A model generated the notes under the pieces. The model had not been told where the DNA came from. It saw only the letters and a program-made list of their open reading frames with translations, and did not search any database. Shown in pieces: positions 480 through 26,291 of a stretch of 64,000 bases of DNA; the first letter of the stretch is position 1; every line of letters begins with the position of its first letter. The position numbers and the translations under genes are program-made. Origin of the DNA: Ipomoea triloba (Eukaryota; Streptophyta; Magnoliopsida; Solanales; Convolvulaceae); assembly GCF_003576645.1 (NCBI RefSeq), contig NC_044924.1, positions 27,726,556 to 27,790,555 of the forward strand, given 5' to 3'.

Positions 480-770
480 TATATCTTTGGAAAAAAAATT
501 AAAGTGAAGTATTGTAGGGGAAAGACAATGCCCAATACAAGATTGCATTAAGTGTAAAAGATATAGCTACTATTGGCATAATAGACTTTCCTTAAATTTT
601 TATTTAGTTAACTCGCATATAGTAAAATAGAGAACGAAATAAGTAATTAAAAGGTTAATTGAAATGTAACGTCAAACCGTTTTTAAGTGCCACCGGACAA
701 ATTAAAAAGTGAATTGAAACGTAACGTCAAACCGTTTAATTTCTAATTGCCACCGAACAAAAAATAAAGC
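480..770 (+). repeat. unit A upstream flank, paralogous to 4130-4350
   Basis: This stretch, including the block around AAAGATATAGCT and CATAATAGACTTTCCTTAAA, matches 4130-4300 with small changes. It is the far-upstream part of the duplicated RING-gene unit, which shows that whole loci and not only promoters were copied. The 660-760 stretch also contains a short internal duplication around AACGTCAAACCGTTT. Confidence 0.7.
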
Positions 771-1419
771 AAGCAACACTACTTCATCTCACTATTGACT
801 TCTTAAATATAGCGCACCTTGCTCAAACTTCATTGTTCACCAGAGCACAAACGAAATTGAGCTAGTGAACTTAGAGGAGAGACAACCTTGTTGCTATTAT
901 TTGTTTAAATGGTGTTTTTGTGAGTTCTCATTTTCATTTGAGATTGAAATTTTTCTAATTTTTCTTGCTATAATTTATTCCATTGATGTTTAATTGTTCT
1001 TCATTTTGCTTGATGTGAGATTCTAGGAATACTCTTTCGGCCATTGATTCCTTGTAGTCTTTTTCCTGCCTAATTTTCATTTTCCTATTTGTTTCTTTAA
1101 TGTTTTTAGTTGGTCTAGTAATTAATTTGATTTTGATTTATCCATTTCCCATTTTCTATAATATAATCTTTGCTTTTCATCTTATTTTTAATTTTCTTTG
1201 CAGCTATTTTGAATTTTTTATTCTTTTAGATCTTATTATATCTAAGATATTTCATGTGAGATTTTTTTGCTTGGTTTTTGTTGTTCTCTATCCGTTGCTT
1301 TGATGCCTGTAGTTGGACTCAGAAGTATAGAATTGCTTGCTGAGTTTGCTGTGTCGAGAATTTTGTTGCAGATGATTACTTCTTTTTGGTTTAATTTACA
1401 CTTACACTGAAATACATGG
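770..1419 (+). promoter_or_regulatory. unit A promoter, leader and non-coding micro-exon
   Basis: First of about seven copies of a promoter/leader segment. It holds an AT-rich TATA-like site (TTAAATATAG near 804), the leader motif GAGCTAGTGAACTTAGA, then a T-rich region that looks like a 5'-UTR intron. A short exon-like block, 1372-1419, is bounded by TTGTTGCAG and GGTATAC. The same blocks recur in units B-G. Transcription is inferred from the conserved order of TATA, leader, intron and micro-exon; nothing shows it directly. Confidence 0.5.
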
Positions 1420-1838
1420 GTATACTGGTTGTCTTTCTCTTTGTATTTCTTTTAAAATTTTGTGAGTGTGTGCTCTATTAGAAGTGGATCTTATATTAAA
1501 CTTTTTTCTTGTCTTAATCTATAGTGAGTGTATATCTTTGGGGTTTCTTTGTTCATTGGCTAAAATGAAATTTTTTTAGTTTCTTTTCGTAAGTGTAAGG
1601 ATATGATTTTGTTATGATCTTTTTGTTTATCTTAGTGTATGGAGAATACCTTTCGGACTTTGATTCATTCTCTAGCTGTTTCAATTTTTTATGTAAGATT
1701 TTTTTTTTAGCTTAGCTTAGTTTTTGAGAGTGTATGTATACCTTAGGGAATTCTTTGTTGTTGAGATTATTATTATTTTTTCTTTTTGTAACATTAAAAA
1801 TTTGATTTTGGTATAACCTCTCATTCACTATATATTTC

Positions 1839-2461
1839 TTGACAAATGCAGCTAAAGAATTATTTGTGAACAAAATGGTTAACCCAAGACCAAGAGGTGA
1901 TGGAGAAAGGCAAGGGCAAGAGGAAGATGGTGTCTTCAACAGACACTTCCAAGGAATTGTTGGAAGAATTGAATCACTCCGAAAAACAATGGCTGAGATA
2001 ATGGAGTCTAAAGCAAAAAAGACCTGCAGCTCTTCTGCTGCTCCTGGAAGTGATGATAACATTATCTATGATGTTCAACCTCTGCGGAGCATTGTGCCCC
2101 AGAATGAGAAAGATGTGGTGATAATAATGAACCTTAAGCTGCACAAGCAGCGGCTTGAGAGAGAGTTGCAAGGGTATATATGCTTCGATTCGATTCCTCA
2201 CAGATTATATTTTTCATGTAATTAATTACATGGCTGTTTATGCAGGCCTACTTAATTAATTGCATGCATTCTTTTTTATAAGAGCTGAGGACATTTGGTG
2301 GTTTATATTAGCTTATAAAAGTGAATTTATTTTCAGGCTCTTCAGCAACATGAGGAGTGGGAGAAGACAAAGCTTCTCCACGAGGCTGAGGCACTGAGGA
2401 GGGAAAGAGCACAAACAATCAAACAATTGATATTAACACGACTTATGTGTTTTATGTTTTG
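1839..2461 (+). pseudogene. RF298/RF4-type E3 ligase fragment lacking the RING (unit A)
   Basis: Coding remnant preceded by a T-rich intron and an acceptor (AAATGCAG, about 1844-1851). Translation from the ATG at 1875 starts MVNPRPRGDGERQG and ends near KLHKQRLERELQG at about 2171, followed by a donor-like GTATAT. After an acceptor (TTTTCAG, about 2336) an exon reads ALQQHEEWEKTKLLHEAE. This matches ALWQQEEREKTKLLQKAE of the unit C gene, so the origin is shared. The predicted junction puts exon 2 out of frame. After 'GGGAAAGAGCA' the sequence jumps to what in unit C is 3' UTR (CAAACAATCAAACAATTGATATT), so the whole RING-coding part, about 0.5 kb, is deleted. Family name comes from the unit C RING. 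It cannot be a working ligase. Confidence 0.6.
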
Positions 2462-2464
2462 ATC

Positions 2465-4130
2465 TTTATTTTTAAATTTGAATGAAAATAGTTGTTTCCA
2501 CAATATAATGTACAAACAAATAGAACACAAAAGGAACCCTAAACCCTAAAATAGAATGGATGAGTGATATGGAAGCCAAGTGATCATTTCCATTATGCCT
2601 TTTTAAACAAAAAAAAAATGTTTAGATGATAAAGGTTAAACACATCAGTCATGTTAAAATGCCATAATCATGAGAAAAGTGGTTGAAAATTGTTGGTGGC
2701 ATTGAACTGACTATTTTTTTCTTTCTTCTTTTGGTAATATTTTATTCAATTACTAAGAAGGCATGTAACAAAAGTATTGCTCTATGGATAGATAATTAGT
2801 ACAAAGTAATTTCCTTTTAAATAAGAATTAAGTTTTAAGGTGCATTTACTAATGAATACAATTGTAATAAATAATTAAATTACCACATTGGATTTTGATC
2901 GAATTATGATTATGGAGTGTTGATGTGGATAGGGATGGCAAAGGGAATAAGGATGTGAAAAATTTAGGGGAACGGGAATGTATGTAATTTCCCGTCATGG
3001 ACGGAAAGGGGACGGGGATACCTCTCTCGGCCCCACCCCATCTCTAAATAATTATTATAATTAAACAATTGATATTGACCAGATTTAAGTGCTTTATGCT
3101 TTCATCTTTATTTTTAAATTTGAATGAAAAATAGTTGTTCCACAATGTCCAAACAAATAGAAAACAATAGGCCAGAATCCTATTTCATTCTTAGTGCTTC
3201 ATTATTGCATTCTCCAAACCGTTTGTTTGGGTAGATTTCCCATAGAAGAGTTATTAATTTGTGCTTGAGAAACAAATTACTCAATTCATATAGTTGGTGT
3301 TGCAAGAATAATGATATCCTTGTATAAGGATACCTTCTCACATAATTTCATCCACACAAATTAAAATTACATTTCATCAGAACTCAAGTCTTATCCAGCT
3401 TTTCCAATTCCTTGCTTAGTCAATGTTGTGAGTTCTCTTTTACACTTATGAGATCATTTCCAGCTTGCTTTTCATTGTTTTCTATGCCTACTTGCTTTCT
3501 TGTTTTTAGTTGGACTTTTAGTATGAATTTTCTAGGTGATTCAGTTTGGAGATTTCAGTAAAAGAGTCTCTTCTTTTTTGTTCTTCACTTGCACTTAAAT
3601 GTATAGGTATATATGGTACGGTGTTTGTTTCTCTCTCTTTTGTGTGTGTGAATTGTATATATGTAACATTTTAAATTTAGAAAATAGAATGTAACATTGC
3701 ACGTTTTTAATTATTATTTTAATTTTTTTTATCAAACTAATATTACTTAGATTATTTCATTATTTAACGTCAATAAGAGTATGTGTCAAACAAACCTCAT
3801 TTAATTTGTTCAATTTGTGTTTGGTTCAATTAACAAAAATTAATCCACATTATTTATAATTTAATTTTTATAGTAAATAATCTTTGTATATATATACATA
3901 CATATATGGTCTTTCTTCTAATAATTGATGCCTATTTTCATTGGTATATGTCCAAATTAAATTCATTTGAATATATTAATTAGTTTCCTATTAATTCTTA
4001 AAATTATGAATAGCAAATTGACTATATTAGCATGTGAAGTTACATCATTCATGATGAAATATTTGGCTTTAATCTTTGTGTTTATTTTTCTTGTCAAAAG
4101 TAATTCTCTAACAATTATACATCCTATTTC
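2465..4130. other. non-coding stretch between units A and B
   Basis: No gene. Positions 3060-3170 repeat the unit A 3' UTR (2422-2525: ACAATTGATATT then TTTATTTTTAAATTTGAATG). Positions 3380-3660 resemble leader/intron DNA of the RING units. Positions 3890-4040 are a flank that recurs at about 13660-13790 and 21385-21480, upstream of later units. The rest is AT-rich with no recognisable signal. Confidence 0.6.
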
Positions 4131-4685
4131 TCTGTATAAATCTTTGAAAAAAAAAAATTAAGGTGAAATATTGTAGGGAAAAGACAGCCCGATATGAGAT
4201 TGTATTTAGTACGTGTAAAAGATATAGCTTCTATTCACATAATAGACTTTCCTTAAAATTTTATTTAGTTACTCTCAAATATAGTAAAATAGAAGCTCAA
4301 ATAAGTAAAAAAGTGAAAACGCCAAATCATTTCAGAGTGCCATTGAATAAAAATATCAAGCAAGCACGATTGACTTCCCATATAGCCTTGCTCTACTTTC
4401 TTATATCACGCAAGCACCACTTCATTGCACAAATGCAATTGAGAGAGTGAACTCAGAGGGGAGACAACTTTGTTGCTATTATTTGTTTAAACGTTGTTTT
4501 TGTGAGTTTTCTTTTCATTTCTGATTGAACGTTTTCGAGTTCTTGCTCTAATTTATTCCATTGATGTTTAATTGTTCTTTGTTTTGCTTGGTGTGCCATT
4601 CTAGGAATACCCTTCAGGCATTTGATTCCGTTGTTTCAAATTATTTTTGTTCATTTCTTAAATTCTGATTTTATATAAGATTTTT
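4130..4685 (+). promoter_or_regulatory. unit B promoter and leader, cut by a Mutator-like element
   Basis: Paralogue of the unit A upstream region. It contains GCAAGCACCACTTCATT and AGAGAGTGAACTCAGAGGGG leader motifs and the start of the 5'-UTR intron. The copy stops at 4685, where AAGATTTTT (4677-4685) is the target duplication of the element inserted at 4686; the leader intron resumes at 10422. Confidence 0.6.
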
Positions 4686-4995
4686 GAGTGATTTTCATTT
4701 TTGGTCCTATTGTTATTATGGCATTGCCAATTTTAGTCCACCAAATTAATTTTGCCACATTTTAGCCAGTGTTTTTATGTCATTGCCACTTTTGATCCGC
4801 CGTTACTATTTCCGTGAGTTTGCCGTCAAAGAGAGAGGTATTGTTGTCCTTTCTTGATTTGGTCTTCTACTTAACCCTTACTGCTGATTTCCTTACGCAT
4901 TTTCATCCTGATGGAGACCTAAATCTCATCTTCCTTCTTCTTCCTATCATTATCAGCTGCAAGTTCTCTTCTCGCCCATGAAGATTTGAGATCCA

Positions 4996-5570
4996 ATGGA
5001 AAGGTACAAAGGAGACAGCTCTAATTCTTCGAGGTCTTCGACTAGAATGAGGCAGTGCTACGTTTATCGGGAATGGATTTCAATTCAACAATGCGAATGC
5101 GGACAAGAAATGGGTTTGAAGACATCATGGACAAATGAGAATCCAGGGCGGAGATATTGGGAATGTTCAAGATGTAAGGTTTGTATTTTTTATAAATTTT
5201 TTGAATGAGTTAATTTGCAATCGTTTTTTTTTCAGCTTGCACTGTATGGCCGAGAATAATTGTAGTATATTTTTTTTTTTTGTCAATTTCGCAATTTTCA
5301 GGCTGATTCACGTGGGTTTGTGAGGTGGTATGATCCCCCGATGTGCCCTAGGTCAAAGAGGATAATACCCGAGTTATTGAAGACACTTAACAAAACTGAA
5401 GAAGAAAATGTAATGTTATGGAAGAAGTGAAGGATAAACATTGGAGTAGAAAATGTACATCCATGATGGTTGATGTAGTTGTTATTGTACTGGTAATTAG
5501 TTTTTTTGTTGTAGGGAGCAATGAGAGTACTGGTAATTGGCAAGAATGTGCCTATGCTCCCATAAGGTGA
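4996..5570 (+). pseudogene. GRF-type zinc-finger protein, frameshifted, inside the Mutator-like element
   Basis: Exon 1 (4996-5178, 61 aa) holds CECG at residues 33-36, then TSWTNENPGRRYWECSRCK. Intron 5179-5301 has a GTTTGT donor and TTTTCAG acceptor. Exon 2 from 5302 reads ADSRGFVRWYDPPMCPRSKR. The order C-x-C, T-S, N-P-G-R-R-Y/F, C, then F-x-W-x-DPP-MCPRS is that of the plant GRF zinc-finger family, thought to bind single-stranded nucleic acid. In the spliced frame the protein stops at 5430 (103 aa). One frame over, from 5418 to 5570, runs EVKDKHWSRKCTS, then VVVIVLVISFF, a likely C-terminal membrane segment seen in many small plant GRF proteins. A frameshift near 5410 therefore probably cut off the tail. 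An alternative is splicing at GTAATG (5410) to TTGTAG (5515). Its place just inside the element end suggests gene capture. Confidence 0.65.
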
Positions 5571-6419
5571 AAACACTGTGTTTATTTGGTTAGAAATGGT
5601 TATGTTGAATGCAAGTTGTAGTCTTATGTTGTGAACAATTATGTTAATGTGCCAATGCAAGTTGTAGTCTTATGTTGGAAATGGTTGTATGTAATGTGCC
5701 TATAACAAATGTCTTGCCAACCAAAACTAGAACCAAACAAAATTGGAAATCAAAACTGAAACCGGTTGGGCAGTAACATAGTAAATGTCATGACAAACAT
5801 AACAAATCCCCTGCCTACCAAATAAAACCCCAGTACTGGTTGGTGTGAAGTATTTAAAGTTTTCAAACATGTTATACCCTAATTCCTCAACTGTTTCCCT
5901 TAAAGTAATTATGCCGCACAAGTCAATATCCAAATTATAACAGTTAGTTGCCCCTCCAACATATCCTATTTCATTCCTTTTAAGTCAACCACCATGCCAT
6001 AACTTCAAAGTAAAGGTATCTGTTTAAATTCATACATAAACACAACAAAGACAACCACTTTAAATGCATACAGAACTCATAATAAATACATACAACAAGC
6101 CTTAATTTTCTAATCTAATCTAACAAATTTTAATATATTCTAACAGAGAATAAAGTAATATGTATGGGTAACGAAATATGTGGTCCACACAGTCTAGGAA
6201 AAGGGAAATTTTTTGAGAGCATAAAGTTAAACATCTACTAGCATGTGGTCCCCAGAACATGTATTTATATTCCCAGAATTTCAAAAGCAAAGTGGGCACC
6301 ACACAACTCATGCATGTTCAACAATCAGTAGACAAACAAGGACAATGACACATATATAAATGACCCACCCAGCCCCAACACTTTTTCACTCTATAAACAC
6401 ACAAAACTCAGAACACATT
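5571..6419. other. internal Mutator-like element DNA, no gene seen
   Basis: AT-rich sequence between the GRF gene and the tandem array. It contains a short repeat of GCAAGTTGTAGTCTTATGTTG (about 5610-5675), probably from the 3' UTR of the captured gene. The open frames here lack codon bias and family motifs. Confidence 0.5.
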
Positions 6420-9400
6420 CATACTAAAATAAAAAAATTCGACATTTACCTAGGTTTGATGCGTCAGCTTCTATATCCGATTCCATCGTCGTTCCTCCCT
6501 CCGTGCGAGCTGGTAGTTTCGAATTTGATAGAATTTGGTCTCCAATTTATTCGCTATTGGTCAGATTTTGGTGCGGTTTTGATCGTATTCGATGAGGGTT
6601 AGGGGATTAGGTTTTACAGCTGAGGACCAGATCGTTTACAGCTAGGATTTTGGTGCGATTTACTTTTTTTATTTATTTTCCTTAGTCAATTAGAAGACCA
6701 GATCATACTAAAATAATAAAAAAAATCGACATTTACCTAGGTTTGATGCGTCAGCTTCTATATCCGATTCCATCGTCGTTCCTCCCTCCGTGCATGTTGG
6801 TAGTTTCGAATTTAATAGAATTTGGTGTACAATTTCTTCGCTCTTGGTCGGATTTTGGTGCGATTTTGGTGCGATTTTGATCGTATTCGATGAGGGTTAG
6901 GGGATTAGGTTTTACGGTTGAGGACCAGATCGTTTATGACTAGGATTTTGGTGCGATTTACTTTTTTTATTTATTTTCCTTAGTCAATTAGAAGACCAGA
7001 TCGTACTACAATAAAAAAAAAATCGACATTTACCTAGGTTTGATGCGTCAGCTTCTATATCCGATTCCATCGTCGTTCCTCCCTCCGTGTGTGCTGGTAG
7101 TTTCGAATTTAATAGAATTTGGTCTCCAATTTCTTCGCTCTTAGCGGATTTTTGTGCAATTTTGGTGCGATTTTGGTGGGATTTTGATCGTATTCGATGA
7201 GGGTTAGGGGATTAGGTTTGACGGCTGAGGACCAAATCGTTTACGGCTGGGATTTTGGTGCGATTTACTTTTTTTTTATTTTCCTTAGTCAATTAGAAGA
7301 CCAGATCGTACTAAAATATAAGAAATTCGACATTTAACTTAATTTGGTGCGTCAGCTTCTATATCCGATTCCATCGTCGTTCCTCCCTCCGTGCGTGCTG
7401 GTAGTTTCGAATTTGATATTATTTGGTCTCCAATTTCATCGCTCTTGGTCTGATTTTTGTGCGATTTTGATCGTATTCGATGAGGGTTAGGGGATTAGGT
7501 TTAACGGCTGAGGACCAGATCGTTTACGGCTGGGATTTTGGTGCGATTTACTTTTTTATTTATTTATTTTCCTTAGTCAATTAGAAGACCAGATCGTACT
7601 AAAATATAAAAAATTCGATCTTTACCTAGGTTTGATGCGTCAGCTTCTATATCCAATTCCATTGTCGTTCCTCCCTCCGTGCGTGCTGGTAGTTTCGAAT
7701 TTGATAGAATTTGGTCTCAAATTTCTTCGCTCTTGGTCGGATTTTGGTGCGATTTTTCTCAAATTTCTTCGCTCTTGGTCGGATTTTGGTGCGATTTTGA
7801 TCGTATTTCTTCGCTCTTGGTCGGATTTTGGTGCGATTTTGATCGTATTCGATGAGGGTTAGGGGATTAGGTTTTACGGCTGAGGACCAGATCGTTTACG
7901 GCTAGGATTTTGGTGCGATTTACTTTTTTTAATTTATTTTCCTTAGTCAATTAGAAGACCAGATCGTACTAAAATAAACAAAAAATCGACATTTACCAAG
8001 GTTTGATGCGTCAGCTTCTATATCCGATTCCATCGTCGTTCCTCCCTCCGTGCGTGCTGGTAGTTTCGAATTTAATAGAATTTGGTCTCTAATTTCTTCG
8101 CTCTTGGTCGGATTTTTGTGCGATTTTGGTGGAATTTTGATCGTATTCGATGAGGATTAGGGGATTAGGGTTTACGGCTGGGATTTTGGTGCGATTTACT
8201 TTTTTATTTATTTATTTTCCTTAGTCAATTAGAAGACCAGATCGTACTAAAATATAAAAAATTCGATATTTACCTAGGTTTGATGCGTTAGCTTCTATAT
8301 CCAATTCCATTATCGTTCCTCCCTCCGTGCGTGCTGGTAGTTTCGAATTTGATAGAATTTGTTCTCAAATTTCTTCGCTCTTGGTCGGATTTTGGTGCGA
8401 TTTTTCTCAAATTTCTTCGCTCTTGGTCGGATTTTGGTGCGATTTTGATCGTATTTCTTCGCTCTTGGTCGGATTTTGGTGCGATTTTGATCGTATTCGA
8501 TGAGGGTTAGGGGATTAGGTTTTACGGCTGAGGACCAGATCGTTTACGGCTGGTATTTTGGTGCGATTTATGTTTTTTTTATTTATTTTCCTTAGTCAAT
8601 TAGAAGACCAGATCGTACTAAAATATTAAAAATTCGACATTTACCTAAGTTTGATGCGTCAGCTTCTATATCCGATTCTATCGTCGTTTCTCCCTCCGTG
8701 CGTGCTGGTAGTTTCGAATTTAATAGAATTTGGTCTCCAATTTCTTCGCTCTTGGTCGGATTTTGGTGCAATTTTGGTGCGATTTTGATCGTATTCGATG
8801 AGGGTTAGGGGATTAGGTTTTACGGCTGAGGACCAGATCATTTACAGCTGGGATTTTGGTGCGATTTAGTTTATTTTTTTTTCCTTAGTCAATTAGAAGA
8901 CCAGATCGTACTAAAATATAAAAAATTCGACATTTACCTAGGTTTGATGCGTCAGCTTCTACATCCGATTCCATCGTCGTTCCTCCCTCCGTGCGTGCTG
9001 GTACTTTCGAATTTGATAGAATTTGGTCTCCAATTTCTTCGCTTTTGGTCTGATTTTGGTGCAATTTTGGTGCGATTTTGATCGTATTCGATGAGGGTTA
9101 GGGGATTAGGTTTTATGGCGGAGGACCAGATTGTTTACGGCTGGGATTTTGGTGCAATTTACTTTTTTTTTTATATTTATTTTCCTTAGTCAATTAAAAG
9201 ACCAGATCGTACTAAAATATTAAAAATTCGACATTTACCTAGGTTTGATGCGTCAGCTTCTATATCCGATTCCATCGTCATTCCTCCCTCCGTGTGATAC
9301 GGCACTCAAGCCAAGACCCTAACTCCACCACAAAAGCTAGCTCATGAGTGGAGGTTTGGCCCCAACTTAAGTACCACTCCACAATCTCTTGTAGAGCCGA

Positions 9401-10190
9401 TGTGGGATCGTATCATTGCCCACCCCTTGAGAAGCCGACGTCCGCGGCGGCTTACTCTAGATAGCCCTTTTCTAGGTCGCCCCCTCCGCTAAGCCGGCAC
9501 CGGATGAGTGGATGGCTTCAGCCCTCTTCCAGGTAGCCCTTTCCCACCACACTCCGGCCTCTCAATGAAAAGCACCAATGATACGGCACTCAAGCCAAGA
9601 CCCTAACTCCACCACAAAAGCTAGCTCATGAGTGGAGGTTTGGCCCCAACTTAAGTACCACTCCACAATCTCTTGTAGAGCCGATGTGGGATCGTATCAT
9701 TGCCCACCCCTTGAGAAGCCGACGTCCGCGGCGGCTTACTCTAGATAGCCCTTTTCTAGGTCGCCCCCTCCGCTAAGCCGGCACCGGATGAGTGGATGGC
9801 TTCAGCCCTCTTCCAGGTAGCCCTTTCCCACCACACTCCGGCCTCTCAATGAAAAGCACCAATGATACGGCACTCAAGCCAAGACCCTAACTCCACCACA
9901 AAAGCTAGCTCATGAGTGGAGGTTTGGCCCCAACTTAAGTACCACTCCACAATCTCTTGTGGAGCCGATGTGGGATCGTATCACTGTGCGTGCATGTAGT
10001 TTCGAATTTGATAGAATTTGGTCTCCAATTTCTTCGCTCTTGGTCGAATTTTGGTGCGATTTTGATCGTATTCGATGAGGGTTAGGGGATTAGGTTTTAC
10101 AGCTGAGGACTAGACCGTTTACGGTTGGGATTTTGGTTCGATTTACTTTTTTTAATTATTTTCCTTAGTCAATTAGAAGACCAGATCGTT
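6420..10190. repeat. subterminal tandem repeat, about ten units of 277-371 bp
   Basis: Each unit carries CATTTACCTAGGTTTGATG, CGTCGTTCCTCCCTCCGTGC, GGATTTTGGTGCGATTTTGA, GATGAGGGTTAGGGGATTAGG and AATTAGAAGACCAGATCGTA. Units start near 6441, 6728, 7025, 7329, 7617, 7988, 8265, 8636, 8929 and 9230; the tenth is split by the TRIM insertion at 9295. Two units (7617, 8265) are 371 bp because the block TTCTTCGCTCTTGGTCGG plus GGTGCGATTTT is repeated inside them. The unit end (GACCAGATCGT) resembles the sequence next to the right inverted end (GACCAGATTATG), so the array probably grew from subterminal DNA. The open frames here (for example 6360-6602 and 7632-7862) merely follow the repeat. Confidence 0.9.
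9295..9983 (-). mobile_element. tandem TRIM-like LTR element (three LTRs, two interiors)
   Basis: Three nearly identical 121-bp LTRs (9295-9415, 9579-9699, 9863-9983) alternate with two identical 163-bp interiors. LTRs run TGATACGG to CGTATCA. The insertion sits in a tandem-repeat unit with a 5-bp duplication CCGTG (9290-9294) / CTGTG (9984-9988), one mismatch. Read on the minus strand, the purine tract AAGGGGTGGGCAA precedes an LTR, as a polypurine tract should, so I place it on minus. No coding capacity. The LTR contains the GATGTGGGATCGTA motif common in plant TRIMs. The LTR-interior-LTR-interior-LTR structure suggests unequal recombination. LTR3 differs at one site (TTGTGGAGCC instead of TTGTAGAGCC). 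Confidence 0.8.
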
Positions 10191-10421
10191 TTTGGGATGG
10201 AAAAAAAAAAGAAAAAAAGAAGAAGAAGACCAGATTATGAAAGGACAACAATACCCCTCTCTTTGACGGCAAACTCGCAGAAATAGTAACGGCGGACCAT
10301 AAGTGGCAATGACGTGACATAAAAATACTGGCTAAAATGTGACATAAATTAATGTGGTGGACTAAAATTGATAATGCCATAATAACAATAGGACCAAAAA
10401 TGGAAATCACTCAAGATTTTT

Positions 10422-11215
10422 CTATAACATTTTTTTGAGACTAATTTTCATTTTCCTCTATTTGTTGCTTTGATGATTTTAGTTGGTCTAGTAATTTGAT
10501 TTTGATTTATCCCTTTCCCATTTTCTATAATTTGTATGTTTTTCATCTTAAATTTACTTACTGATTGTTTTCACAATTTTGTTGCAAAGGACTATTTTTG
10601 TTCCGTCCCAAAGGTATGTTGGTTTTCTCCTTGTGTTTTTTTTTTTTTAAATTCTGTAAATTCTTGATCTATTAGAATTTAATCTTATGTCACACCTCTT
10701 TCTTTGTTTATCCTTGGAAATGAGATTTTTTTAAATAGGAGTGAAGATATGATTTTTCTAGTATTTCTGTTTCTATATTTTTTTTTTTGTTTTTTCGTAC
10801 TGAATTTGCTTGCTGATTCATACTAGTAATTTTGTTGCAGAGGGGGGAGGACGTACTACTTCTTTTTGGTCTACATTGTAATAAAATTCAAAGGTATACT
10901 GATTTTCTCTCTACTTATCTTTTAAAATTTCCTGAACTATTTATGCTCTATTAAAATTGGATCTGACGTTATTACACTTGTTTTTTTATTTCATGAACTT
11001 CTGGTCTATTAAAATTTGATATATCTTATGTTACACCTCTTTCTTTGTTCATCCATGGAAATGAGAATTTTTATTTTTATTTATTTATTTAGGGTAAGAG
11101 CAAACATCTAATTTTTCTAATCTTTATGTTTATGTGTATGTTACAATTTAATTTGGTGTTGTATTGAGATCGAGTTGCAGCTAATGAGCTAAAGAGTAGT
11201 TTCAATTCCCAGGCA
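10422..11215 (+). other. unit B 5'-UTR intron, right part
   Basis: T-rich intron-like DNA continuing unit B after the Mutator-like insertion. Two micro-exon-like blocks are visible: about 10586-10613 (preceded by GTTGCAAAG, so the AG acceptor is damaged) and about 10842-10895 (preceded by TTGTTGCAG, ending AAAGGTATAC). The block with TTTGTTCATCC, GGAAATGAGA occurs twice (about 10700 and 11045), so the intron is itself partly duplicated. Confidence 0.45.
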
Positions 11216-11294
11216 GCAAAAATGGTTAACCCAAACGCAGGAGGAGGCGGGCGAAGGCAACAACAATGGTGATGACGAGAAGGGCAAGAGGAAG

Positions 11295-11477
11295 ATGGTG
11301 TGCCTTATGTGCTTGAGTGTGGAAAAAACAGTAGCTTTCCTCCCTTGTGCTCATCTGGCTCTATGCCAAGACTGTAATGTGGTTCATCAAAGACTAGGAA
11401 TGAATGACTGTCCTACTTGTCGAACCCCAATCAAGAGGCGGATCACTGTCCGTTTTCCTCCTCCCCTTACAAAATGA
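11295..11477 (+). CDS. RING-HC finger, RF298/RF4-type E3 ligase C-terminal piece (unit B)
   Basis: Sixty residues that are almost nothing but a complete C3HC4 RING: C3, C6, C18, H20, C24, C27, C39, C42, with FLPCAH and DCPTCRTPIKRR. The spacing and text fit the C-terminal RING of plant RF298/RF4/MIP1-type E3 ubiquitin ligases, which are normally several hundred residues long. An upstream ATG at 11222 (MVNPNAGGGGRRQQQW, shared with the start of unit A) is in another frame and stops at 11270, so a frameshift separates it from the RING. Start chosen at 11295 as the first ATG in frame. Without a substrate-binding part it is either a RING-only peptide or, more likely, a pseudogene. All zinc ligands being intact is worth noting. 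Confidence 0.5.
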   Translation: MVCLMCLSVEKTVAFLPCAHLALCQDCNVVHQRLGMNDCPTCRTPIKRRITVRFPPPLTK

Positions 11478-11697
11478 AATTCTTTATGTTCATTACCAAT
11501 TTATATATTAATTAATAATTATTCTCCATATAAATAGAGACAACTACATTACAAATAACAGCTATATAAAACTTGACCTAGTAAGATTAAGTTTAAATTT
11601 TTGATGGGAGCATGTGCCCCTTACTTTCTTTATGGCAGTCTGTGTGCTTTATATGTATGTGTTATATAGTTGTTTGGATGTTCATAGCAAAGTTTAT

Positions 11698-15955: not shown

Positions 15956-16744
15956 TTATTTTTGTGTATAGAAAATACTTGAAAAGGGGCCTAATTAAGA
16001 TATCGTAGAGGACCCCAATTTTTATTGGAACGGCCCTGTATGTGAGACTGGTCAAATATTAGATGGTTACCACTTTTTACTTATTGTAGAAATCATAATA
16101 CTTAATATAGAAAATTTAATACGAATTTGAAATAAATAAATTGTTACTAATGATAAATATTGTAATACTTATAACTAAAATTGTGATACTTACAAAGTGC
16201 ATGTAATTCTAATGTAAATATTGAAATCCATAAATGTGGAATTTTACTTATGAAAACATTACAGTACTTAATGTAGAAAATGTAATACCAATTAGAAATT
16301 AAAAATATATCATCACTCATAATATATATTGTAATACTAATATGTGAAATTAAGTGTGATACTATTTAGGGCAAAATTGATTGTTACTAATGATAAATAT
16401 TGTAATAATACTTATAACTGAAATTATAATACTTACACACCTAGTTGTCTATGTCTCAATCGTCTTGTCCATGAGACGATTTTACACAAGTTTTGCCATA
16501 TAAAAAATATAAGTGTGTATTTATAAAATAAAAATAATAATAATATCTTGATTTATGGATAAATATTAATTGCTTGTCATATTCTTATTTCGAAAAAGGT
16601 ATTTTAAAATTTTCTGAAATAGAGAAACTGTTTTGAAACATTTTATGAAATTTTCATAAATTTGTGGAAGAATATATTTTTACATTTTTGACGTAAGAGC
16701 TTACGTCATGGAGTTGCTACGGAAGCGCTTACGTTATGGAATTG

Positions 16745-18390
16745 CTACGTAAGCGCTGGCGTCATCGGTGAATTTCTCTCCTATATAAAGCTGACTAAAC
16801 TTCGATCAGTCTTCACCGCAATGAGTACACAGTCTCAAAATGGAGAAATCTTGTTCTAGTTATTTGCTCAATTAGTGTCTTATAAGTTCTCCTTTTCATC
16901 TAAGGTTAATTGAACTTTTGCTTTTTCTTCATTTATATCATTGATGTTTGATTGATCGTCTGTGTTTAACCTCTCCATGAGATTGAGATATATCAAAAAC
17001 ATCTTTCTAGACTCTGATTTAATTTATTCTTGGGTTGTTTGGTTTTTATTTCAGATAACTACTCATTTTTTAATCTACCCTTAGACACATAGGTGTGATG
17101 GTTATTATTTTTTTTTAAAAAAAATTGTGAAAGGAATAGAACCAATCTCATGATTAACTTCTTTCATGTCTAATGTATATTGAGTATATATGTCTTAGAT
17201 TTTTTTTTTTTAAAGAATTATCTCTTGAGATTTTTTGTTCATCGATTGAAATGAGAGTACTGTTTTTTTTTTTTTTTTTTAAATCGATGTGCCCTGTAAT
17301 CTTTTGATTCCTTGTGTGGTTGTTTCAAATTTTTATTTTATTTTCTTAAATCTTATTACACCTAAGTTTTTTTAAAGCTAGATTTTCTATGGGATCTTCA
17401 ATCTAACATTGTAGAATTAGATTTTATGTTTCACATTTTTCATGTTTAATGTATGTCTTCTTCTTCTTTTTTTTTCTTTTGAGGAATTATATGTATGAGA
17501 TTCTTTGTCCATCTGCTCAATTGAGAGTATTTTTTTAAAGATCAATTTGATTTTGCTATAATCTTTCTGCTTATCTACTACTTGGCTTCTCTCTTTCCAA
17601 ATTTTGATTCCATGTGTCGTTGTTTCGAATTTGTTGCTTTTATTTAAAAAAAAAAAAATTGGTTATATGCAAGATTTTTTGAAAAGCTAAATTTGTTGTG
17701 GGATTGCAGATTCGACATAACATTGTAGAATATGATCTTATGCTCCACCTCTTTCATGTCTAATGTATATTGACTATATAGTATATATGTTTGAGATTTT
17801 TTTTTATTTAACTTTATGTCTTTGATTTATTTGTTTATAAGGACCTGATTTTGCTATAATCTTTCCGTGTATGTATTACTTTGTTTCCGTGTATGTATAT
17901 TGACACCTTTTTAGACTTTAATTAATTCCTTCTAGTTGTTTTACATTTTTGGCCTTTTATTTTTTATTTTAGATCTATTAAATGTAAAGATTTTTTTTAG
18001 CTTCATTTTCATTGTGCTTTTTATTTTCAGATTTTTAGTCTTAAATTTGCTTGCTAATTTGTTAATTGAATTTTGTTGCAGATGACTACTTCTTTTTGGT
18101 GCTGCACTACTTGCATTGACATGTTAAGGTATGATGATATTCTCTCTTTGTTCTTTTTAGAATTTTGTGAATTATTCTCTATTAGAATTTGTTTCTTATG
18201 TTGCACTTCTTTCTTGTCTTAATGCATAGCAAGTAAATATATATGTTTGGGATTTCTCTGTTCATCACTTGAAATGAGAGTTTTTTTTTTTTCTTAGAGT
18301 AAATATCTGATATGATTTTGCTGTAATATTTTTTTTCTTCATTTTTTGTGTATCTTACAATTTGTTTTTGCATTGACAATTGCAGCTAAA
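16745..18390 (+). promoter_or_regulatory. unit C promoter, leader intron and micro-exon
   Basis: Just upstream, 16690-16765 holds an imperfect triple repeat of the motif ACGTAAGCGCTTACGTCAT, a candidate cis-element with TGACG/ACGTCA cores. A clean TATA box, CTATATAAAG, lies at 16782-16791, followed by a leader with CTCAAAATGGAGAAATCTTG and the T-rich intron. A micro-exon-like block 18082-18128 is bounded by TTGTTGCAG and GGTATGATG. The intron repeats itself about every 0.3-0.5 kb (TTTCATGTCTAATGTATATTGA recurs near 17162 and 17750). Confidence 0.5.
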
Positions 18391-18392
18391 CA

Positions 18393-18545
18393 ATGTTTGG
18401 TGCCAAGGATATACCAGCTCTATCTTCCTCAATGATGAAGAGTTATGAGTTATTAGACGAAAAACTCCATAATGCATTGAATGAGCTTAGGTATTTGAAT
18501 AAAAAATATGACCCCTTGTTTAATGCGAACAAGAAAATTAATTGA
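18393..18545 (+). CDS. 50-residue N-terminal piece of the unit C gene, uncertain
   Basis: Directly after an acceptor (ATTGCAG at about 18378-18384) an ATG opens a 50-codon frame: MFGAKDIPALSSSMMKSYELLDEKLHNALNELRYLNKKYD. It is helical and charged, as expected for a coiled-coil part. It ends 57 bp before the next frame at 18603. It may be the first exon of the unit C RING gene (a donor-like AG/GTATTT lies at 18489-18496) or a remnant. I recognise no domain. Confidence 0.3.
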   Translation: MFGAKDIPALSSSMMKSYELLDEKLHNALNELRYLNKKYDPLFNANKKIN

Positions 18546-18602
18546 AAAATATGTTCCATCTCAACTAAAAATTTATTTAGGTTTTATATTATTATATGCT
18601 CA

Positions 18603-19289
18603 ATGTTCAACAAAGCCGACTGTGAAATCTCACAACTAGTTGTGAGGGATGATCTTATGGCAGTTGAGCTTGAGAAGCTTCTAATTCCCACAATACAATC
18701 AAGAAGATCCTCTGCTGTTCCTGTGTCACTAATGCAGCGTAAGCAACAGCTGCAGAAAGAGGTGCAGGGTTGGATTGATTGGACTAATGTGAAGGTATAT
18801 ATGCTTTGATACTATGTTATTATCTGATCTCAGCTCTGTACAATTTTATGCCTAGCCTACTTGCATTATATTCTTTTTGCCTGAATTATATATAAGAGGA
18901 AATTTCAGGCTCTTTGGCAACAAGAAGAGAGGGAGAAGACAAAGCTTCTCCAGAAGGCGGAGTCTATTTGGAGGGAGAGGCAACAAAGGAAGCAGAAGAC
19001 AAAAATGGAGGAGGAAAAGTTGATAGCAAAGGCAGAAGAGAACAGCAGGGTGAAATTGGCAGCTGTGGGGGAAAGTTCAAGCCAGCAGGGAGGCATAAAA
19101 CGCGAATGGGAATGCGTTATGTGCTTGACTGAGCCAAAATCAGTAGTTTTCCTCCCTTGTGCCCATAAGGCTCTTTGCACAAACTGCAATGTGCTTCATG
19201 AAAGGCAAGGAATGAAGGACTGTCCCGTTTACAGAACGCCAATCATGAAGCGGATCCAAGCCTGCTTTGTTCCTCCAAAAGCACACTAG
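18603..19289 (+). CDS. RF298/RF4-type RING protein with an altered RING (unit C)
   Basis: Two exons: 18603-18794 (64 codons, ending TNVK before GTATAT) and 18909-19289 (after TTTCAG), 190 aa in all. Residues 42-115 are a charged, Q/E/K-rich coiled coil (QRKQQLQKEVQ, EEREKTKLLQKAE, QQRKQKTKMEEEK). The RING follows: C133, C136, FLPCAH with C148 and H150, C154, C157, C169. The eighth ligand, expected at residue 172 in CPxCR, is tyrosine (CPVYR). Such E3 ligases transfer ubiquitin through an E2 bound by the RING; loss of a ligand should weaken or abolish this. The usual family length is several hundred residues, so the N-terminal part is missing or lies in unseen exons. Best preserved of the local copies, but doubtful as a working ligase. 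Family call from the RING text; well supported. Confidence 0.65.
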
Positions 19290-20120: not shown

Positions 20121-21198
20121 ATTGTATAATGATTGTCCATTCACTAGCAATTGTGATAGTTCCAAAAAGATAATGGACATGATTGCCTAAGATAATAACC
20201 ACAACCATCTAAAAAGAATTATATTGAATTGTTTCTAATGATTGTATAATGATTGTCCATTCACTAGCAATTGTGATAGTTCCAAAAAGATAATAGACAT
20301 GGTTGCCTAAGATAATAACCACAACCATCTAAAAAGAATTATATTGAATTGTTTCTAATGATTGTATAATGATTGTCCATTCACTAGCAATTGTGATAGT
20401 TCCAAAAAGATAATAGACATGGTTGCCTAAGATAATAACCACAACCATCTAAAAAGAATTATATTGAATTGTTTCTAATGATTGTATAATGATTGTCCAT
20501 TCACTAGCAATTGTGATAGTTCCAAAAAGATAATAGACATGGTTGCCTAAGATAATAACCACAACCATCTAAAAAGAATTATATTGAATTGTTTCTAATG
20601 ATTGTATAATGATTGTCCATTCACTAGCAATTGTGATAGTTCCAAAAAGATAATAGACATGGTTGCCTAAGATAATAACCACAACCATCTAAAAAGAATT
20701 ATATTGAATTGTTTCTAATGGTTGTATAATGATTGTCCATTCACTAGCAATTGTGATAGTTCCAAAAAGATAATGGACATGGTTGTCTAAGATAATAACC
20801 ACAACCATCTAAAAAGAATTATATTGAATTGTTTCTAATGATTGTATAATGATTGTCCATTCACTAGCAATTGTGATAGTTCCAAAAAGATAATGGACAT
20901 AGTTGTCTAAGATAATAACCACAACCACCTAAAAAGAATTATATTGAATTGTTTCTAATGATTGTATAATGATTGTCCATTCAGTAGCAATTGTGATAGT
21001 TCCAAAAAGATAATGGACATGATTGCCTAAGATAATAACCACAACCATCTAAAAAGAATTATATTGAATTGTTTCTAATGATTGTATAATGATTGTCCAT
21101 TCACTAGCAATTGTGATAGTTCCAAAAAGATAATGGACATGATTGCCTAAGATAATAACCACAACCATCTAAAAAGAATTATATTGAATTGTTTCTAA
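20121..21198. repeat. minisatellite, 9 x 120 bp
   Basis: Nine head-to-tail units of exactly 120 bp, starting ATTGTATAATGATTGTCC and ending AATTGTTTCTAATG, differing at only a few positions. Each unit holds an imperfect inverted pair TGTCCATT / AATGGACA about 40 bp apart. In units 2-5 the second arm reads AATAGACA; units 1 and 6-9 have AATGGACA; units 6 and 7 also share TTGTCTAAG. These shared variants show that blocks of units, not single units, were copied. No coding frame. Confidence 0.95.
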
Positions 21199-21668
21199 AC
21201 AGCTATAAAATATTATTTTGAAGTAATTTTTATAGAGTTATTAGTTGTAACCTACACTTAGTTTTTTTTTTTTTTAATAATTTATTATGTGAATGCTTAT
21301 AATGTTAGGTGAATGCTTATTACAATGTGTTGAATGAATTTTTTAAACATACCATGTAAAATAAAATGAATGATGCATATTTAATTTTCTTTGGTATGTC
21401 CAAATTAAATTCATTGAATATATAAATTACTTGCCTATTAATTCTTAAAATTAAAAATAGCAATCTGATTATTATATTAATTATTATTTAAGTTAATTAC
21501 CTAATGAAATAAACAAACCAAACAGGTGAAAATGGAAAAAGATAAAAATGTTAGCAACCATGTTATAATTACACAAGGAGAAATTAGACTTTTAGTCATT
21601 TAATTATTTTAATTATTTTAGATGTTAGAATATGATTCCTCTATTATAAGATGAATATGTTTCGATTG
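21199..21668. other. AT-rich spacer, flank of unit D
   Basis: No gene. Positions 21385-21480 match the flank seen before units B and C (TTGGTATGTCCAAATTAAATTCATT). Confidence 0.5.
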
Positions 21669-22239
21669 TTATGCCATGGACCTGGGTGTCCAAAACGGCG
21701 TCGTTTTGCTTTAAAATGACGCCGTCAGAATTAAAAGAAAAAAATTGCTTCTTTCTTTGACGTTTGTCTTTAGAATTCGTTCCTTAATTTTTATTCATAA
21801 TTTTTGAACTTTATATTCACAATTTTAGATCTCAATAAACAAAATTACAGAATTCAATATTTACAATTGTAAAACTCTATATTCACAATTACAGAACTCT
21901 ATATTCACAATTTCATAACTCTATATTTACAATTAAAGAACTATATATTCACAATTACTAAACTTTATATTCAACAGTATAACACAATTTTGAATCTATA
22001 TTCACAATTTTTGAACTTTATATTCATAAATTTTGAACTTTATATTCATAAATTTTGAACTTTATATTCACAAATTTTTAACTCTGTATTAACAATTTTT
22101 GAACTCTATATTTACAAAATAAAAAAAATAAAAAAAATCATTGGCTGAGAAAACGGTGCCACTAACGGCACCATTATTCCAGACGCACGTTTTGGACATG
22201 AGTCTAGCTTACAAGGTGGACCCGGGTCCATAGCATAAT
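21669..22239. mobile_element. TIR element with TTATGCYATGGACCYGGGT ends
   Basis: The left end reads TTATGCCATGGACCTGGGTGTCCAAAACG; the right end, reversed, reads TTATGCTATGGACCCGGGT, and further in ATGTCCAAAACG. Inside, 21780-22120 is a decayed minisatellite of 'AACTTTATATTCACAATTT' units of about 19-22 bp. No frame. Shorter CCATGGTCCA-type pieces at 12215 and 31285 may be relatives. Confidence 0.55.
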
Positions 22240-22649
22240 TTGCTAATACGTTTGGTCCCTTAATTATCTTCTTTGTTATAGGTATCGCCATTTTACTTAT
22301 GGACCAAATAGATCTCCATTTAAATCAACTTTAAGAAGGAAAATTTTGATAAGTATGCATAACATATTTTTCACCTTTATCCATCATTATATCATTTGAC
22401 CAATCGTACGTATTGAAACAAAATTTATTATCCCCCGGTTCAAATCAAGATTTACTTAGGGTCCACATATATATGTTCACTTTATAATTAAGAGGTCATA
22501 TCTATAATGATAGAGATAATTAAGGGATAAAATGTTTTTATTTTATAATTAAAGGGCCAAATTTTAACATATAAATAATTAAGGGACATAAGTGTAATTT
22601 TCTATTTGCACAAATATTCATGTTGAAAAGTTAAAAAAATGAAAAAATG

Positions 22650-23134
22650 AAAACTCCAAAACAATTGAGTGACAGCTAGTAAAAATGTCACGCAAGCACC
22701 ACGCGATGTCCTGATCGACGGCATTATATAACCTCTATTGAACGTCAATGTTAAAGTAGAGAAACATATGCAAAAGAGCTAGTGAACTTAAATTCTTGCC
22801 AATCTACTGTGCAATCTCAAAAACAGAGATAATCTTGCTACGATTTTTTGCTAAAATAGTATTTTGTAGGTTTTCATTTTCGTCCAATATTCAACCTTTT
22901 TGCTAGATTTACTTTGATTTATCCCATTGATGTTTGATTATTATTTATTTCTCTTGGTGATCTATTTGTATGAGTATCTTCTGGATTTTGATTCATTGTC
23001 CGATTATTTTAAAATTTTTGCTTTTTGTATTTATATCTAACTATATATAATAATTTTTTTGTGAATTTTTTTTCTACATTTTGTTGCAGATCGAAGACTA
23101 CTTTTTGATTTTGCACTTAGATTGAAACACATAG
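22650..23134 (+). promoter_or_regulatory. unit D promoter, leader and micro-exon, no coding part
   Basis: TATA box ATTATATAACC (22724-22734), leader TCAATGTTAAAG ... GAGCTAGTGAACTTAAATTC, then CAATCTCAAAAACAGAGATAATC and a T-rich intron. Micro-exon block 23090-23134 lies between TTGTTGCAG and GGTATGG. No RING or coiled-coil coding sequence follows before unit E. Confidence 0.55.
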
Positions 23135-23814
23135 GTATGGTGGTTTTCTTTGTGTTTCTTAAATAATTTTTCTAAATTTTTAATTTCTTCTACCCAACTT
23201 GGATCTTATGTTTCACCCCTTTCTTGTCTAAATGTATAGTGAATGTATGTGCTTTGAATTTCTTGGTCATCAGTTGAAATAAAATTGTTTCTTTTTGAAA
23301 AAGAAAATATTTGATTTTGTTAAAAATTTTATGTGGGTGTTTGGTTTATGGGTTTTAAACTCTCCCAATAGATTTAAATCCAATTACGTTATTTGTTTAA
23401 CTTTTTTTTTTCACTTTAAATTGAAATTCAAATCATGAAGGAATGAAAAAAGTCATTCTGGTATAAAATCTCACTTTTTTTTTCTTGAAAGGAAAAAATC
23501 AAATTTTTTGTCACTCCACTATTTTCCTTATGCAGATTAGCTCCTCCATCAATTTTGAAATACCTTCATATCTCAATCTATATTCCTTGTTAGTATCAAT
23601 TGCAATGCTAATTATTTCATACGATTTTCACCATGCTTCAAACCTTACAACGGTAGAGATAATTAAATATTAAAATATTTTTATTTTATAATTAATGGAA
23701 CAAATTCAACATATAAAATAATTAAAGAACCTAAAGTATAATTTTCTCTTCGCACAAATGTTCATGTTGAAAATAGAAAATAGAAATATGAAAAACTGAA
23801 GAAAAAATGTGAAA

Positions 23815-24290
23815 ATTCCAAAACAATTGAGTGACACCGAGTAAAAATGCCACGCAAGCTGCACGCAATGTCCTGTCCGCCCTTATATAACCTTTGTTGA
23901 ATATCAATGTTAAAGCAAAAACACATATGCAAAATAGCGAGTGAACTTAAATTCTTGGCAATCTACTATGCAATCTCAAAAACAAAGACAATCTTGTTAC
24001 GATTTTTTGCTAAAACAAAGTTTTGTAGATTCCCATTTTCGTCCAATATTCAACTTTTGCTAGATTTTGCTTTGATTTATCCATTGATGTTTGATTATTC
24101 TTTATTTCTCTTGGTGATCTATTTGTAGGAGTACCTTCTGGATTTTGATTCCTTGGCGGGTTATTTTAAAAATTCTTGCTTTTTTTGTTTTTAGATCTGA
24201 CTATATATAAGAATTTTTTTGTGAACATTTTTTCTATTTTTTGTTGCAGAAGACTACTTTTTGGTTATGCACTTGCATTGAAACACAAAG
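23815..24290 (+). promoter_or_regulatory. unit E promoter, leader and micro-exon, no coding part
   Basis: Close copy of unit D: TGCCACGCAAGCTGCACG, TATA box CTTATATAACC (23881-23891), leader GCGAGTGAACTTAAATTC, intron, and a 41-nt micro-exon 24250-24290 between TTGTTGCAG and GTATGG. Upstream, 23640-23760 also repeats the flank of unit D (22490-22640). Confidence 0.55.
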
Positions 24291-24659
24291 GTATGGTGGT
24301 TTTCTTTGTGTTTCTTGTATAATTTTTAAATTTTTGTCCTACCCAAATTGGATCTAATGTCAGTTGTATCCTTTTTTTGTCTAAATGCATTGTGAGTTTA
24401 TGTGCTTTGAATTTCTTGGTCATCGTTCAAAATAAAATTGTTTCTTTTTGTAAGAGAAAAGATCCAATTTTCTTTTAAACTAAATTTGATTTGGTTATAA
24501 ATTTTCTGTGGTGTTTGGTTTATGGGTTTTGAATTCCCCTAATAGATTTAAATCCAATTACTTTGTTTGTTTTAGTATTTTTTTCACTGTGAATTGATAT
24601 TCAAATCATGATGGAATGAAAAAAGTTATTATCGTAAAATCTTACATTTGTTTATTGAA

Positions 24660-25010
24660 AGGAAAAAAAAAACTTTTGGTCCCTCCACTATTTTCCTTAT
24701 GCAATTTATTCCCTCGGACAATTTTTAAACAATCTGTCCCTCAATTATTGTTCTTAGTGTCACCAATTTAACCCCTCAGTTAAATACCCTGTGTTTAAAC
24801 TTTCTTTAGTTTCAAGATCTTTCTTGGATCTTTTTTGGGGGAACTTCACACACAACTCTGAATTTACTTTCATATCTCTATGTATATTCTTCGTTAGTAT
24901 CAATTGCAATGCTAGTTATTTCATATGATTTTCACCACGCTTCAAACCCTACAATGGTAGAGATAATTAAAGGTCAAAATGTGTGTATTTTATAATTAAG
25001 GGACCAAATT
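24660..25010. repeat. 3' flank repeat of the unit D/E/G type
   Basis: The stretch with TTGGTCCCTCCACTATTTTCC, ACTTCACACACAACT and TCATATGATTTTCACCACG matches about 26640-26930 and, shortened, 23495-23645. It is intergenic DNA of the duplicated units, with no gene. Confidence 0.6.
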
Positions 25011-25124
25011 CACCATATAAAATAACTAAGGAACCTAAAGTGTAATTTTCTCTTAGCACACAAATGTTCATGTTGAAAGTAGAAAATAAAAATGTGAAAA
25101 ACTGGAAAAAAAATGTTAAAATCC

Positions 25125-25503
25125 CAAAACAATTGAGTGACAACGAGTAAAAATGTCACGCAAGCTGCACGCAATGTCCTGTCCGCCCTTATATAACCTT
25201 TGTTGAACATCAATGTTAAAGCAAAAACACATATGCAAAATAGCGAGTGAACTTAAATTCTTGGCAATCTACTGTGCAATCTCAAAAACAAAGACAATCT
25301 TGCTACGATTTTTTGCTAAAACAACGTTTTGTAGGTTCCCATTTTCGTCCAATATTCAACTGTTGCTAGATTTTTCTTTGATTTATCCCATTGATGATTG
25401 ATTATTCTTTATTCTTTAAAATTCTTGCCTTTTGTGAACTTTTTTTCTATTTTTTGATGCAGAAGACTACTTTTTGGTTATGCACTTGCATTGAAACAAA
25501 AAG
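25125..25503 (+). promoter_or_regulatory. unit F promoter, leader and micro-exon, shortened intron
   Basis: Nearly identical to unit E through the leader (TATA box CTTATATAACC at 25189-25199). About 90 bp of the intron is missing, so the micro-exon (25463-25503, after GATGCAG) lies closer. The following GT is GTGAAAATC rather than GTATGGTGG, and the copy breaks off there. Confidence 0.55.
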
Positions 25504-25894
25504 GTGAAAATCATATTAAATTAATAAGGCAACTAATACTAATGATTCATATGGGTTGCCTATGAATGGAAATGGGGAACTGTGTACATTTTTTTTTAAA
25601 TTAAGGAATACCTTAAAATGAATGAAAGTTTAACAAATAGTCAAATATGGGATTGATAACGTTTAGAATAGATGATAGACAAAATTTCATAAATTTAACA
25701 ATGATGAATAAATTGTATAAGGTACAATAATTGAGAAACTAAGTGTAATAATAAGGATTATAAAAAAAAAAGGTGTAATAATAAGGGAAAAAATTGAAAA
25801 AGAAATAAAATTCCTCCTTGCTTTCAAGTCTCACACATACATTATACATATGGGTGAATTTATTTATTTATATAAGTTTCAAACTAGTGTACAC

Positions 25895-26291
25895 TACAAT
25901 TGAGTGACAACAAGTAAAAATGTCACGCAAGCCGCACGCCATGTCAAGAGCGAGTGAACTTAAATTCTTTGCAATCTAAAAATTAAAACAGAGATAATCT
26001 TGCTACGATTTTTTACTAAAACAGTGTTTTGTAGGTTCCCATTTTCATCTAATATAACTTTTTTGCTAGATTTTTTTTTTTTAAATTTATCCCATTGATG
26101 TTTGATTATTATCTATTTCTCTTGGTGATCTGTTTGCAGAAAAATCTTATGGATTTTGATTCCTTATTTTAAAAGTCTTGCTTTTGTATTTAGATTCGAC
26201 TATATATAAGAATTTTTTTGTGAACTTTTTTTTTCTACTTTTTGTTGCAGAAGACTACTTTTTGGTTCTGCACTTGGATTAAAACACAAAG
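25895..26291 (+). promoter_or_regulatory. unit G leader and micro-exon, TATA region deleted
   Basis: GTCACGCAAGCCGCACGCCATGTC runs straight into AAGAGCGAGTGAACTTAAATTC, so the TATA box and about 70 bp found in units D-F are gone. Intron and micro-exon (26251-26291, TTGTTGCAG to GTATGG) are kept. Confidence 0.5.

What the first reader, a model, noticed from the sequence alone, without database searches (positions are those of the whole stretch)
770..26291. Promoter, leader and micro-exon cassette amplified about seven times, mostly without its gene
Units A-G repeat the same order: CACGCAAGC-type upstream word, TATA box, (G)AGYGAGTGAACTTAAATTC leader, T-rich intron, and a 41-48 nt exon between TTGTTGCAG and GTATGG. 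Only A-C keep any RING-gene coding sequence; D, E, F and G carry the front end alone. Retention of TATA and splice borders in gene-less copies could mean they are young, or that the transcripts themselves (non-coding leaders, possibly sources of small RNA) matter. I know no described family of this kind.
Basis: partly seen in the sequence, partly recalled or inferred. Interest (0 to 1): 0.75.

Follow-up and report, generated by a model that had tools for sequence, protein, structure and literature searches.

The report
Repeated gene front ends in Ipomoea
A wild relative of sweet potato carries rows of copied gene starts (promoter plus untranslated exons) of a ubiquitin-ligase gene; at two other places in its genome such a row sits before one intact gene, but here the gene behind the row has decayed to a scrap.

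Summary
Units A-G are 5' ends (promoter, exons 1 and 2, part of intron 2) of RF298-like RING E3 genes. A, B and C are three damaged genes; B is split by a 5.7-kb Mutator-like element. D-G are a tandem array of one 5' cassette, followed by a scrap of its coding body at 26936-27018. The exon-2 piece has 41 matches in the genome, D-G included. Two arrays on C4 end in intact genes of 673 and 663 codons. D-G and two other arrays group by position in the array, so a several-cassette array predates the copying of the locus. Leader exon and micro-exon diverge as much as introns; the TATA box stands out, a leader core and GGTATG only weakly. Best reading: 5' partial tandem duplication placing several candidate promoter/UTR sets before one gene, the window copy now a relic. 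Two-copy precedent: PEP1 of Arabis alpina (PMC3527215). Promoter use is untested.

The parts
560..2470 (+). Unit A: damaged RING-family gene with one 5' cassette (leader from about 845, exon 2 at 1372-1419, ATG at 1875 in exon 3); its coding match stops at 2414 and runs into 3'-end sequence, RING part missing
4221..4685 (+). Unit B, front part: promoter, exon 1, start of intron 1
   Evidence: 85% to A over 212 columns
4677..10421 (.). Mutator-like element (4686-10412, 5727 bp) with 9-bp target duplications AAGATTTTT (4677-4685, 10413-10421); splits gene B
   Evidence: terminal inverted repeats 89% identical over 193 columns
10422..11476 (+). Unit B, rest: exon 2 (10841-10893), a second exon-2-like stretch (about 10587-10613) and the RING coding exon; the first ATG is not in the RING frame
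16680..19289 (+). Unit C: RING gene with TATATAA at 16782 and exon 2 at 18082-18128; last RING cysteine replaced by tyrosine (CPVY)
   Evidence: I. batatas relative P0001 reads CPVC
22502..23560 (+). Cassette D (array position 1): TATA 22725, exon 2 23090-23134
23561..24951 (+). Cassette E (position 2) with upstream flank: TATA 23884, exon 1 about 23917-24028, exon 2 24250-24290
24952..25505 (+). Cassette F: partial, recent copy of E (3.9% different over 381 columns); TATA 25190, exon 2 25463-25503; intron 1 shortened, match ends 2 nt after exon 2
25896..26928 (+). Cassette G (last position): TATA deleted at 25945|25946; exon 2 26251-26291
26936..27018 (+). Scrap of the RING gene's coding body: three collinear pieces (26936-26980, 26977-26996, 26996-27018) matching L011 2105-2146, 2833-2852, 2957-2979
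   Evidence: E = 1e-10, 9e-6, 1e-4, in a search of 600 bases

Best explanation
The units are 5' ends of RF298-like RING E3 genes that multiplied in this Ipomoea. In one branch a stretch from just upstream of the promoter to inside intron 2 was duplicated in tandem. That left one coding body behind several copies of [TATA, exon 1, intron 1, exon 2]. The whole locus was then copied to several places, where some copies kept the gene and others lost it. D-G are such a copy with the gene reduced to a scrap; A-C are separate, damaged single-cassette genes. Shown: homology, order, gene behind the array at two loci, coding scrap in the window, grouping by position in three arrays. Inferred: unequal crossing-over as the mechanism, and the exon borders. 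Where a gene survives, each cassette may start transcripts that splice to exon 3, giving the same protein from several promoters; this use is untested and I give it about 0.2-0.3.
For: Order upstream-leader/intron 1-exon 2-intron 2-flank repeats head to tail in arrays on C4 (four), C9 (two, the window included) and C10. A more distant gene (L014, 43% protein identity) has a single cassette with the same parts in the same order, the likely ancestral layout. The last cassette of C4a is followed by an open 673-codon gene whose exon 3 opens with an acceptor and carries the ATG; C4b by a 663-codon gene, 648 of 659 aligned residues identical. Pfam: PIR2-like_helical and zf-C3HC4_3. Three collinear coding pieces lie after G. 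Tree clades: {D, C4c-1, C4d-1, C4a-1} 0.99; {E, F, C4c-2, C4d-2} 1.0; {G, C4c-4, C4d-4} 0.99. Mean difference 0.063 for the same position in different arrays (17 pairs) against 0.112 for different positions in one array (17 pairs).
Against: No transcript data. Leader exon and micro-exon show no constraint above introns as wholes. TATATAA is kept no better in the two arrays with an intact gene (16 of 17) than in the five where none was seen (15 of 15 with data; G, which lost it, has no aligned letters there). One of two candidate exon-1 donors is lost in several cassettes. The position order is clear only for the window, C4c and C4d, and C4c and C4d are close copies (1-3% different); most cassettes of C4a, C4b, C9b and C10 do not fall into a simple 1-2-3-last order. 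Same- and different-position distances overlap (up to 0.093 against down to 0.071). C4a and C4b could be two haplotypes misassembled as an inverted duplication.
Confidence: 0.82

Rival explanations
1. Same history, no use: the arrays are neutral debris of a 5' partial tandem duplication, with only the last cassette ever used by a gene. (This competes with the promoter-battery part, not with the structural history.)
For: Exons no more conserved than introns; GT/AG borders kept at the rate of random intron dinucleotides; decayed gene in C4d, scrap in the window, no coding match after C4c and C10.
Against: TATATAA kept in 31 of 32 rows with aligned data, 31 of 33 with G (0.4% of intron 7-mers do as well); no change on the tree in 7 columns, P 0.004 before correction for 12 tested stretches. 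Leader core kept in 16 of 23 rows (3.3% of intron 16-mers do as well). Rows are related, so none of these is a clean test.
Confidence: 0.6
2. The cassettes make functional non-coding or small RNAs independent of any RING gene.
For: TATATAA (15 of 15 with data), leader core (11 of 14) and GGTATG (15 of 15) are well kept in the five arrays where no intact gene was seen.
Against: Leader exon and micro-exon as wholes diverge like introns; G lost its TATA box and F ends just after exon 2; the arrays stand at the 5' end of a gene where it survives.
Confidence: 0.05
3. A transposable element captured the gene's front end and spreads it.
For: Copies on C4, C7, C9, C10, C14 and C16.
Against: Three arrays share order and position groups, as expected for block copying of a locus. 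Element ends at the cassette borders were not searched for, so this is only weakly tested.
Confidence: 0.07

Closest known systems
PEP1 locus of Arabis alpina (PMC3527215; abstract and passages seen)
   Different: Two copies, with a coding exon 1 and little homology upstream of the two copies; here several copies alike in their promoters, with exons 1-2 before the start codon, and use not shown
Clustered variable first exons (UGT1A, protocadherins; recalled)
   Same: Array of promoter plus first exon before one shared body
   Different: Those exons code and diversify the protein; here the start codon is in exon 3
Schistosoma japonicum gene family with similar promoter and signal sequence (PMC3434034; abstract seen)
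   Same: Core promoter and first part of a gene dispersed in many copies
   Different: There it carries a signal sequence and heads different genes; here it is UTR only and arrayed before its own gene
RF298/RF4 RING E3 genes of plants
   Same: PIR2-like helical domain and C-terminal C3HC4 RING; nr names RF298
   Different: Multiplied 5' ends; two searches of held papers for RF298 found none

Membership tests
RF298-like RING E3 gene family | PIR2-like helical domain plus C-terminal C3HC4 RING | tested here: met
   C4a gene: PF20235 E 1.6e-14, PF13920 E 3.8e-11; nr RF298 relatives up to 95% identity
RF298-like RING E3 gene family | Complete, in-frame RING in the window's genes | tested here: not met
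   A: no RING match; C: CPVY for the last cysteine; B: RING ligands all present by eye but out of frame with the first ATG
5' partial tandem duplication (PEP1 type) | Head-to-tail copies of promoter and first exons before one coding body | tested here: met
   C4a, C4b; window: body reduced to a scrap
5' partial tandem duplication (PEP1 type) | Several copies start transcripts that splice to the shared body | not testable with these tools
   No plant RNA data held
Mutator-like element in gene B | Long terminal inverted repeats and 9-bp target duplication (rule recalled) | tested here: met
   89% over 193 columns; AAGATTTTT on both sides
Mutator-like element in gene B | Transposase of that class | not tested
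   No search made inside the element

The most novel reading that the evidence does not exclude
A RING E3 gene acquired an ancestral battery of three or more TATA promoters with untranslated exons in tandem, and the battery, its TATA boxes above all, has been kept through repeated copying of the locus because multiple start sites tune the dose or timing of one unchanged protein.
Probability: 0.22. Interest if true: 0.6.

Novelty: new variant of a known kind. Interest (0 to 1): 0.4.

Why it matters
Two-copy 5' partial duplications can change expression of plant genes (PEP1). An array of several, with cassettes traceable by position across loci, some with an intact gene and some without, is a natural series for testing whether extra promoters add output, compete or decay, and which elements are kept.

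Tried and rejected
Rejected: D-G as gene-less inventions (coding scrap; arrays before genes). Rejected: 'young copies' as the general answer (only E/F). The C16 copy was left out of the cassette set: it has a 1582-base stretch 100% identical to C4c and the fetched locus has 4001 Ns, so it may be an assembly artefact. More distant copies on C7 (L024), C14 (L025), C9 (L020) and C4 (L015) and units A-C were left out of the divergence tables; L017, L018 and L021 were mapped and not taken further except L017, which was joined to L016. The seven arrays gave 44 aligned rows (listed); 3 were dropped for under 78% identity (C4a:464, C4d:15, C4b:3554), leaving 41. Rows are not all whole cassettes: interrupted cassettes give two rows, and some rows are fragments. 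The tree used the 35 of 44 rows with at least 330 aligned bases, C4b:3554 as outgroup; one search used the 34 without it. In one search, pairs sharing fewer than 250 columns were skipped, and positions had been assigned from the tree. The 41 matches include D-G, two on the suspect C16 and one place listed as two adjoining pieces. Papers: searches for RF298 found none; searches for tandem first-exon arrays gave 0, 19, 1 and 0 papers; a search on PIR2/MIP1/RING gave 73, 8 listed, none of whose titles concerns this plant family; one on I. triloba genomes gave 6, gene-family surveys of other families by title. I saw no multi-cassette plant case in the listings. Only two papers were opened: PMC3434034 (outline and abstract) and PMC3527215 (outline, abstract, passages).

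Full report
What the window is. The window lies at G000:C9:27726556-27790555. The lengths of C4 and C14 in that genome (36343649 and 23651743) are the contig lengths given for two proteins labelled Ipomoea triloba (P0021, P0024), so I take it to be I. triloba. The RING reading frame of unit C is 84% identical to an I. batatas protein named RF298.

Is the observation right? The seven units are homologous, with the corrections listed under the observation check: G has lost its TATA box, F is a shortened copy of E, A and B have no TATATAA at the matching place, the border words vary, and B's exon would be 53 nt. Unit B is one gene split by a 5727-bp element with terminal inverted repeats at 89% identity over 193 columns and the 9-bp duplication AAGATTTTT on both sides, typical of Mutator-like elements (the class rule is recalled, and no transposase was looked for).

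How many copies there are. The exon-2 piece of E (133 bases) gave 41 matches in the whole genome (42 first-look candidates, 40 scored), on C4, C7, C9, C10, C14 and C16, D-G included. I fetched 17 stretches around these and 3 more and mapped the modules in the first 17 and the window. Arrays of the same order stand on C4 (four: C4a 29.30-29.32 Mb, C4b 29.09-29.10, C4c 29.358-29.363, C4d 14.69-14.70), on C9 near 26.96 Mb (C9b), on C10, and in the window (D-G). A C16 copy is suspect.

What the cassette belongs to. In C4a the last cassette is followed by a coding body whose three exons splice to an open frame of 673 codons; its exon 3 begins after a TTGCAG acceptor and carries the ATG, so exons 1 and 2 are untranslated in this model. 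C4b gives 663 codons, with 648 of 659 aligned residues identical. The protein has a PIR2-like helical domain and a C3HC4 RING and nr relatives named RF298 at up to 95% identity. C4a also holds an internal, decayed coding piece between cassettes. C4d's coding region has stops and frame changes. No coding match was found after the last cassette in about 5 kb at C4c, 3 kb at C10 and 4 kb at C9b. After G in the window, three short pieces match the coding body in the right order. A more distant relative (L014, the row C4b:3554) has one cassette and one gene, which I take as the ancestral layout.

History. In a tree of 35 rows, D groups with the first cassettes of C4a, C4c and C4d (0.99), E and F with the second of C4c and C4d (1.0), G with the last of C4c and C4d (0.99). 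Same-position copies in different arrays differ by 0.063 on average (17 pairs), different positions in one array by 0.112 (17 pairs); the positions were assigned from the tree, so this restates it, and the two ranges overlap. C4c and C4d are themselves close copies, so this is chiefly a comparison of the window with one other lineage; cassettes of C4a, C4b, C9b and C10 mostly form other groups. Still, D, E and G each being closer to their counterparts in C4c/C4d (0.059-0.082) than to one another (0.115-0.122) means that an array of at least three cassettes is older than the copying of that locus. Within the window only the E/F pair is recent.

Is anything conserved? Mean pairwise difference over 41 rows: upstream 0.135, exon 1 0.104, intron 1 0.096, exon 2 0.126, intron 2 0.114-0.123, TATA 9 columns 0.037, donor-1 9 columns 0.050, donor-2 6 columns 0.020. 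TATATAA is whole in 31 of 32 rows with data, and G, without aligned letters there, has lost it; 0.4% of intron 7-mers are kept as well. AG (29 of 31) and donor-2 GT (31 of 31) are not unusual for intron dinucleotides (31% and 17% of windows do as well). Weaker signals on the other side: the 16-base leader core in 16 of 23 rows (3.3% of intron windows as good), GGTATG in 26 of 29 (9.5%); outside C4a/C4b 11 of 14 (1.8%) and 15 of 15 (1.3%). The upstream word CACGCAAGC is ordinary (16 of 32, 50%) (all). On the tree TATATAA has no change in 7 columns (P 0.004 against intron columns, 12 stretches tested); exon 1 and exon 2 are not clearly below introns (P 0.34 and 0.16). The two arrays with intact genes are not better kept than the others. 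This speaks against functional leader RNAs as wholes and is at best a hint for promoter function; rows are related and P values uncorrected.

How it most likely works. Shown: a head-to-tail 5' array before one RING gene at two loci, and the same array before a coding scrap in the window. Inferred: origin by unequal exchange between the upstream flank and intron 2, and the exon borders. Speculative: that several cassettes are used. PEP1 of Arabis alpina shows that such a layout can give two differentially expressed transcripts with shared downstream exons (PMC3527215, abstract and passages). For D-G themselves I expect no present role.

Verdict. A real feature, larger than reported, of a known kind (5' partial tandem duplication) in an unusual multi-copy form; the window copy is a relic.

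Noticed in passing
window 4686-10412: Mutator-like element with 89% terminal inverted repeats; inside are arrays of about 288-bp and 284-bp repeats and a stretch near 5038-5430 that I read by eye as a GRF-type zinc-finger fragment (recalled, not searched).
   Followed up: partly
window 20121-21198: Nine copies of a 120-bp tandem repeat at 98% matches between units C and D.
   Followed up: no
window 16691-16765: Promoter of unit C holds 2.7 copies of a 28-bp repeat with ACGTAAGCGCTTACGTCA, which resembles bZIP sites (recalled).
   Followed up: no
window 10587-10613 and 17055-17092: Further exon-2-like stretches inside introns of B and C, read by eye (the end of the first also matches): the micro-exon may be duplicated within single genes too.
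   Followed up: partly
window 3059-3112: A piece matching the 3' end of unit A (83%), perhaps the tail of another lost gene copy between A and B.
   Followed up: no
window 45689-55393: Cluster of small frames on both strands that look like SAUR auxin-response genes by eye (label recalled).
   Followed up: no
C4a, C4b, C9b, C10 (L010, L013, L019, L023): Seven rows lack about 59 bases between TATA box and leader (E 23895-23953) and fall into two groups of the tree.
   Followed up: partly
P0033 (I. trifida protein): Annotated protein whose first part is 98% identical to the C4a gene product over 18% of it and which carries PF14244 (a retroelement gag family, recalled), seemingly a fusion.
   Followed up: no
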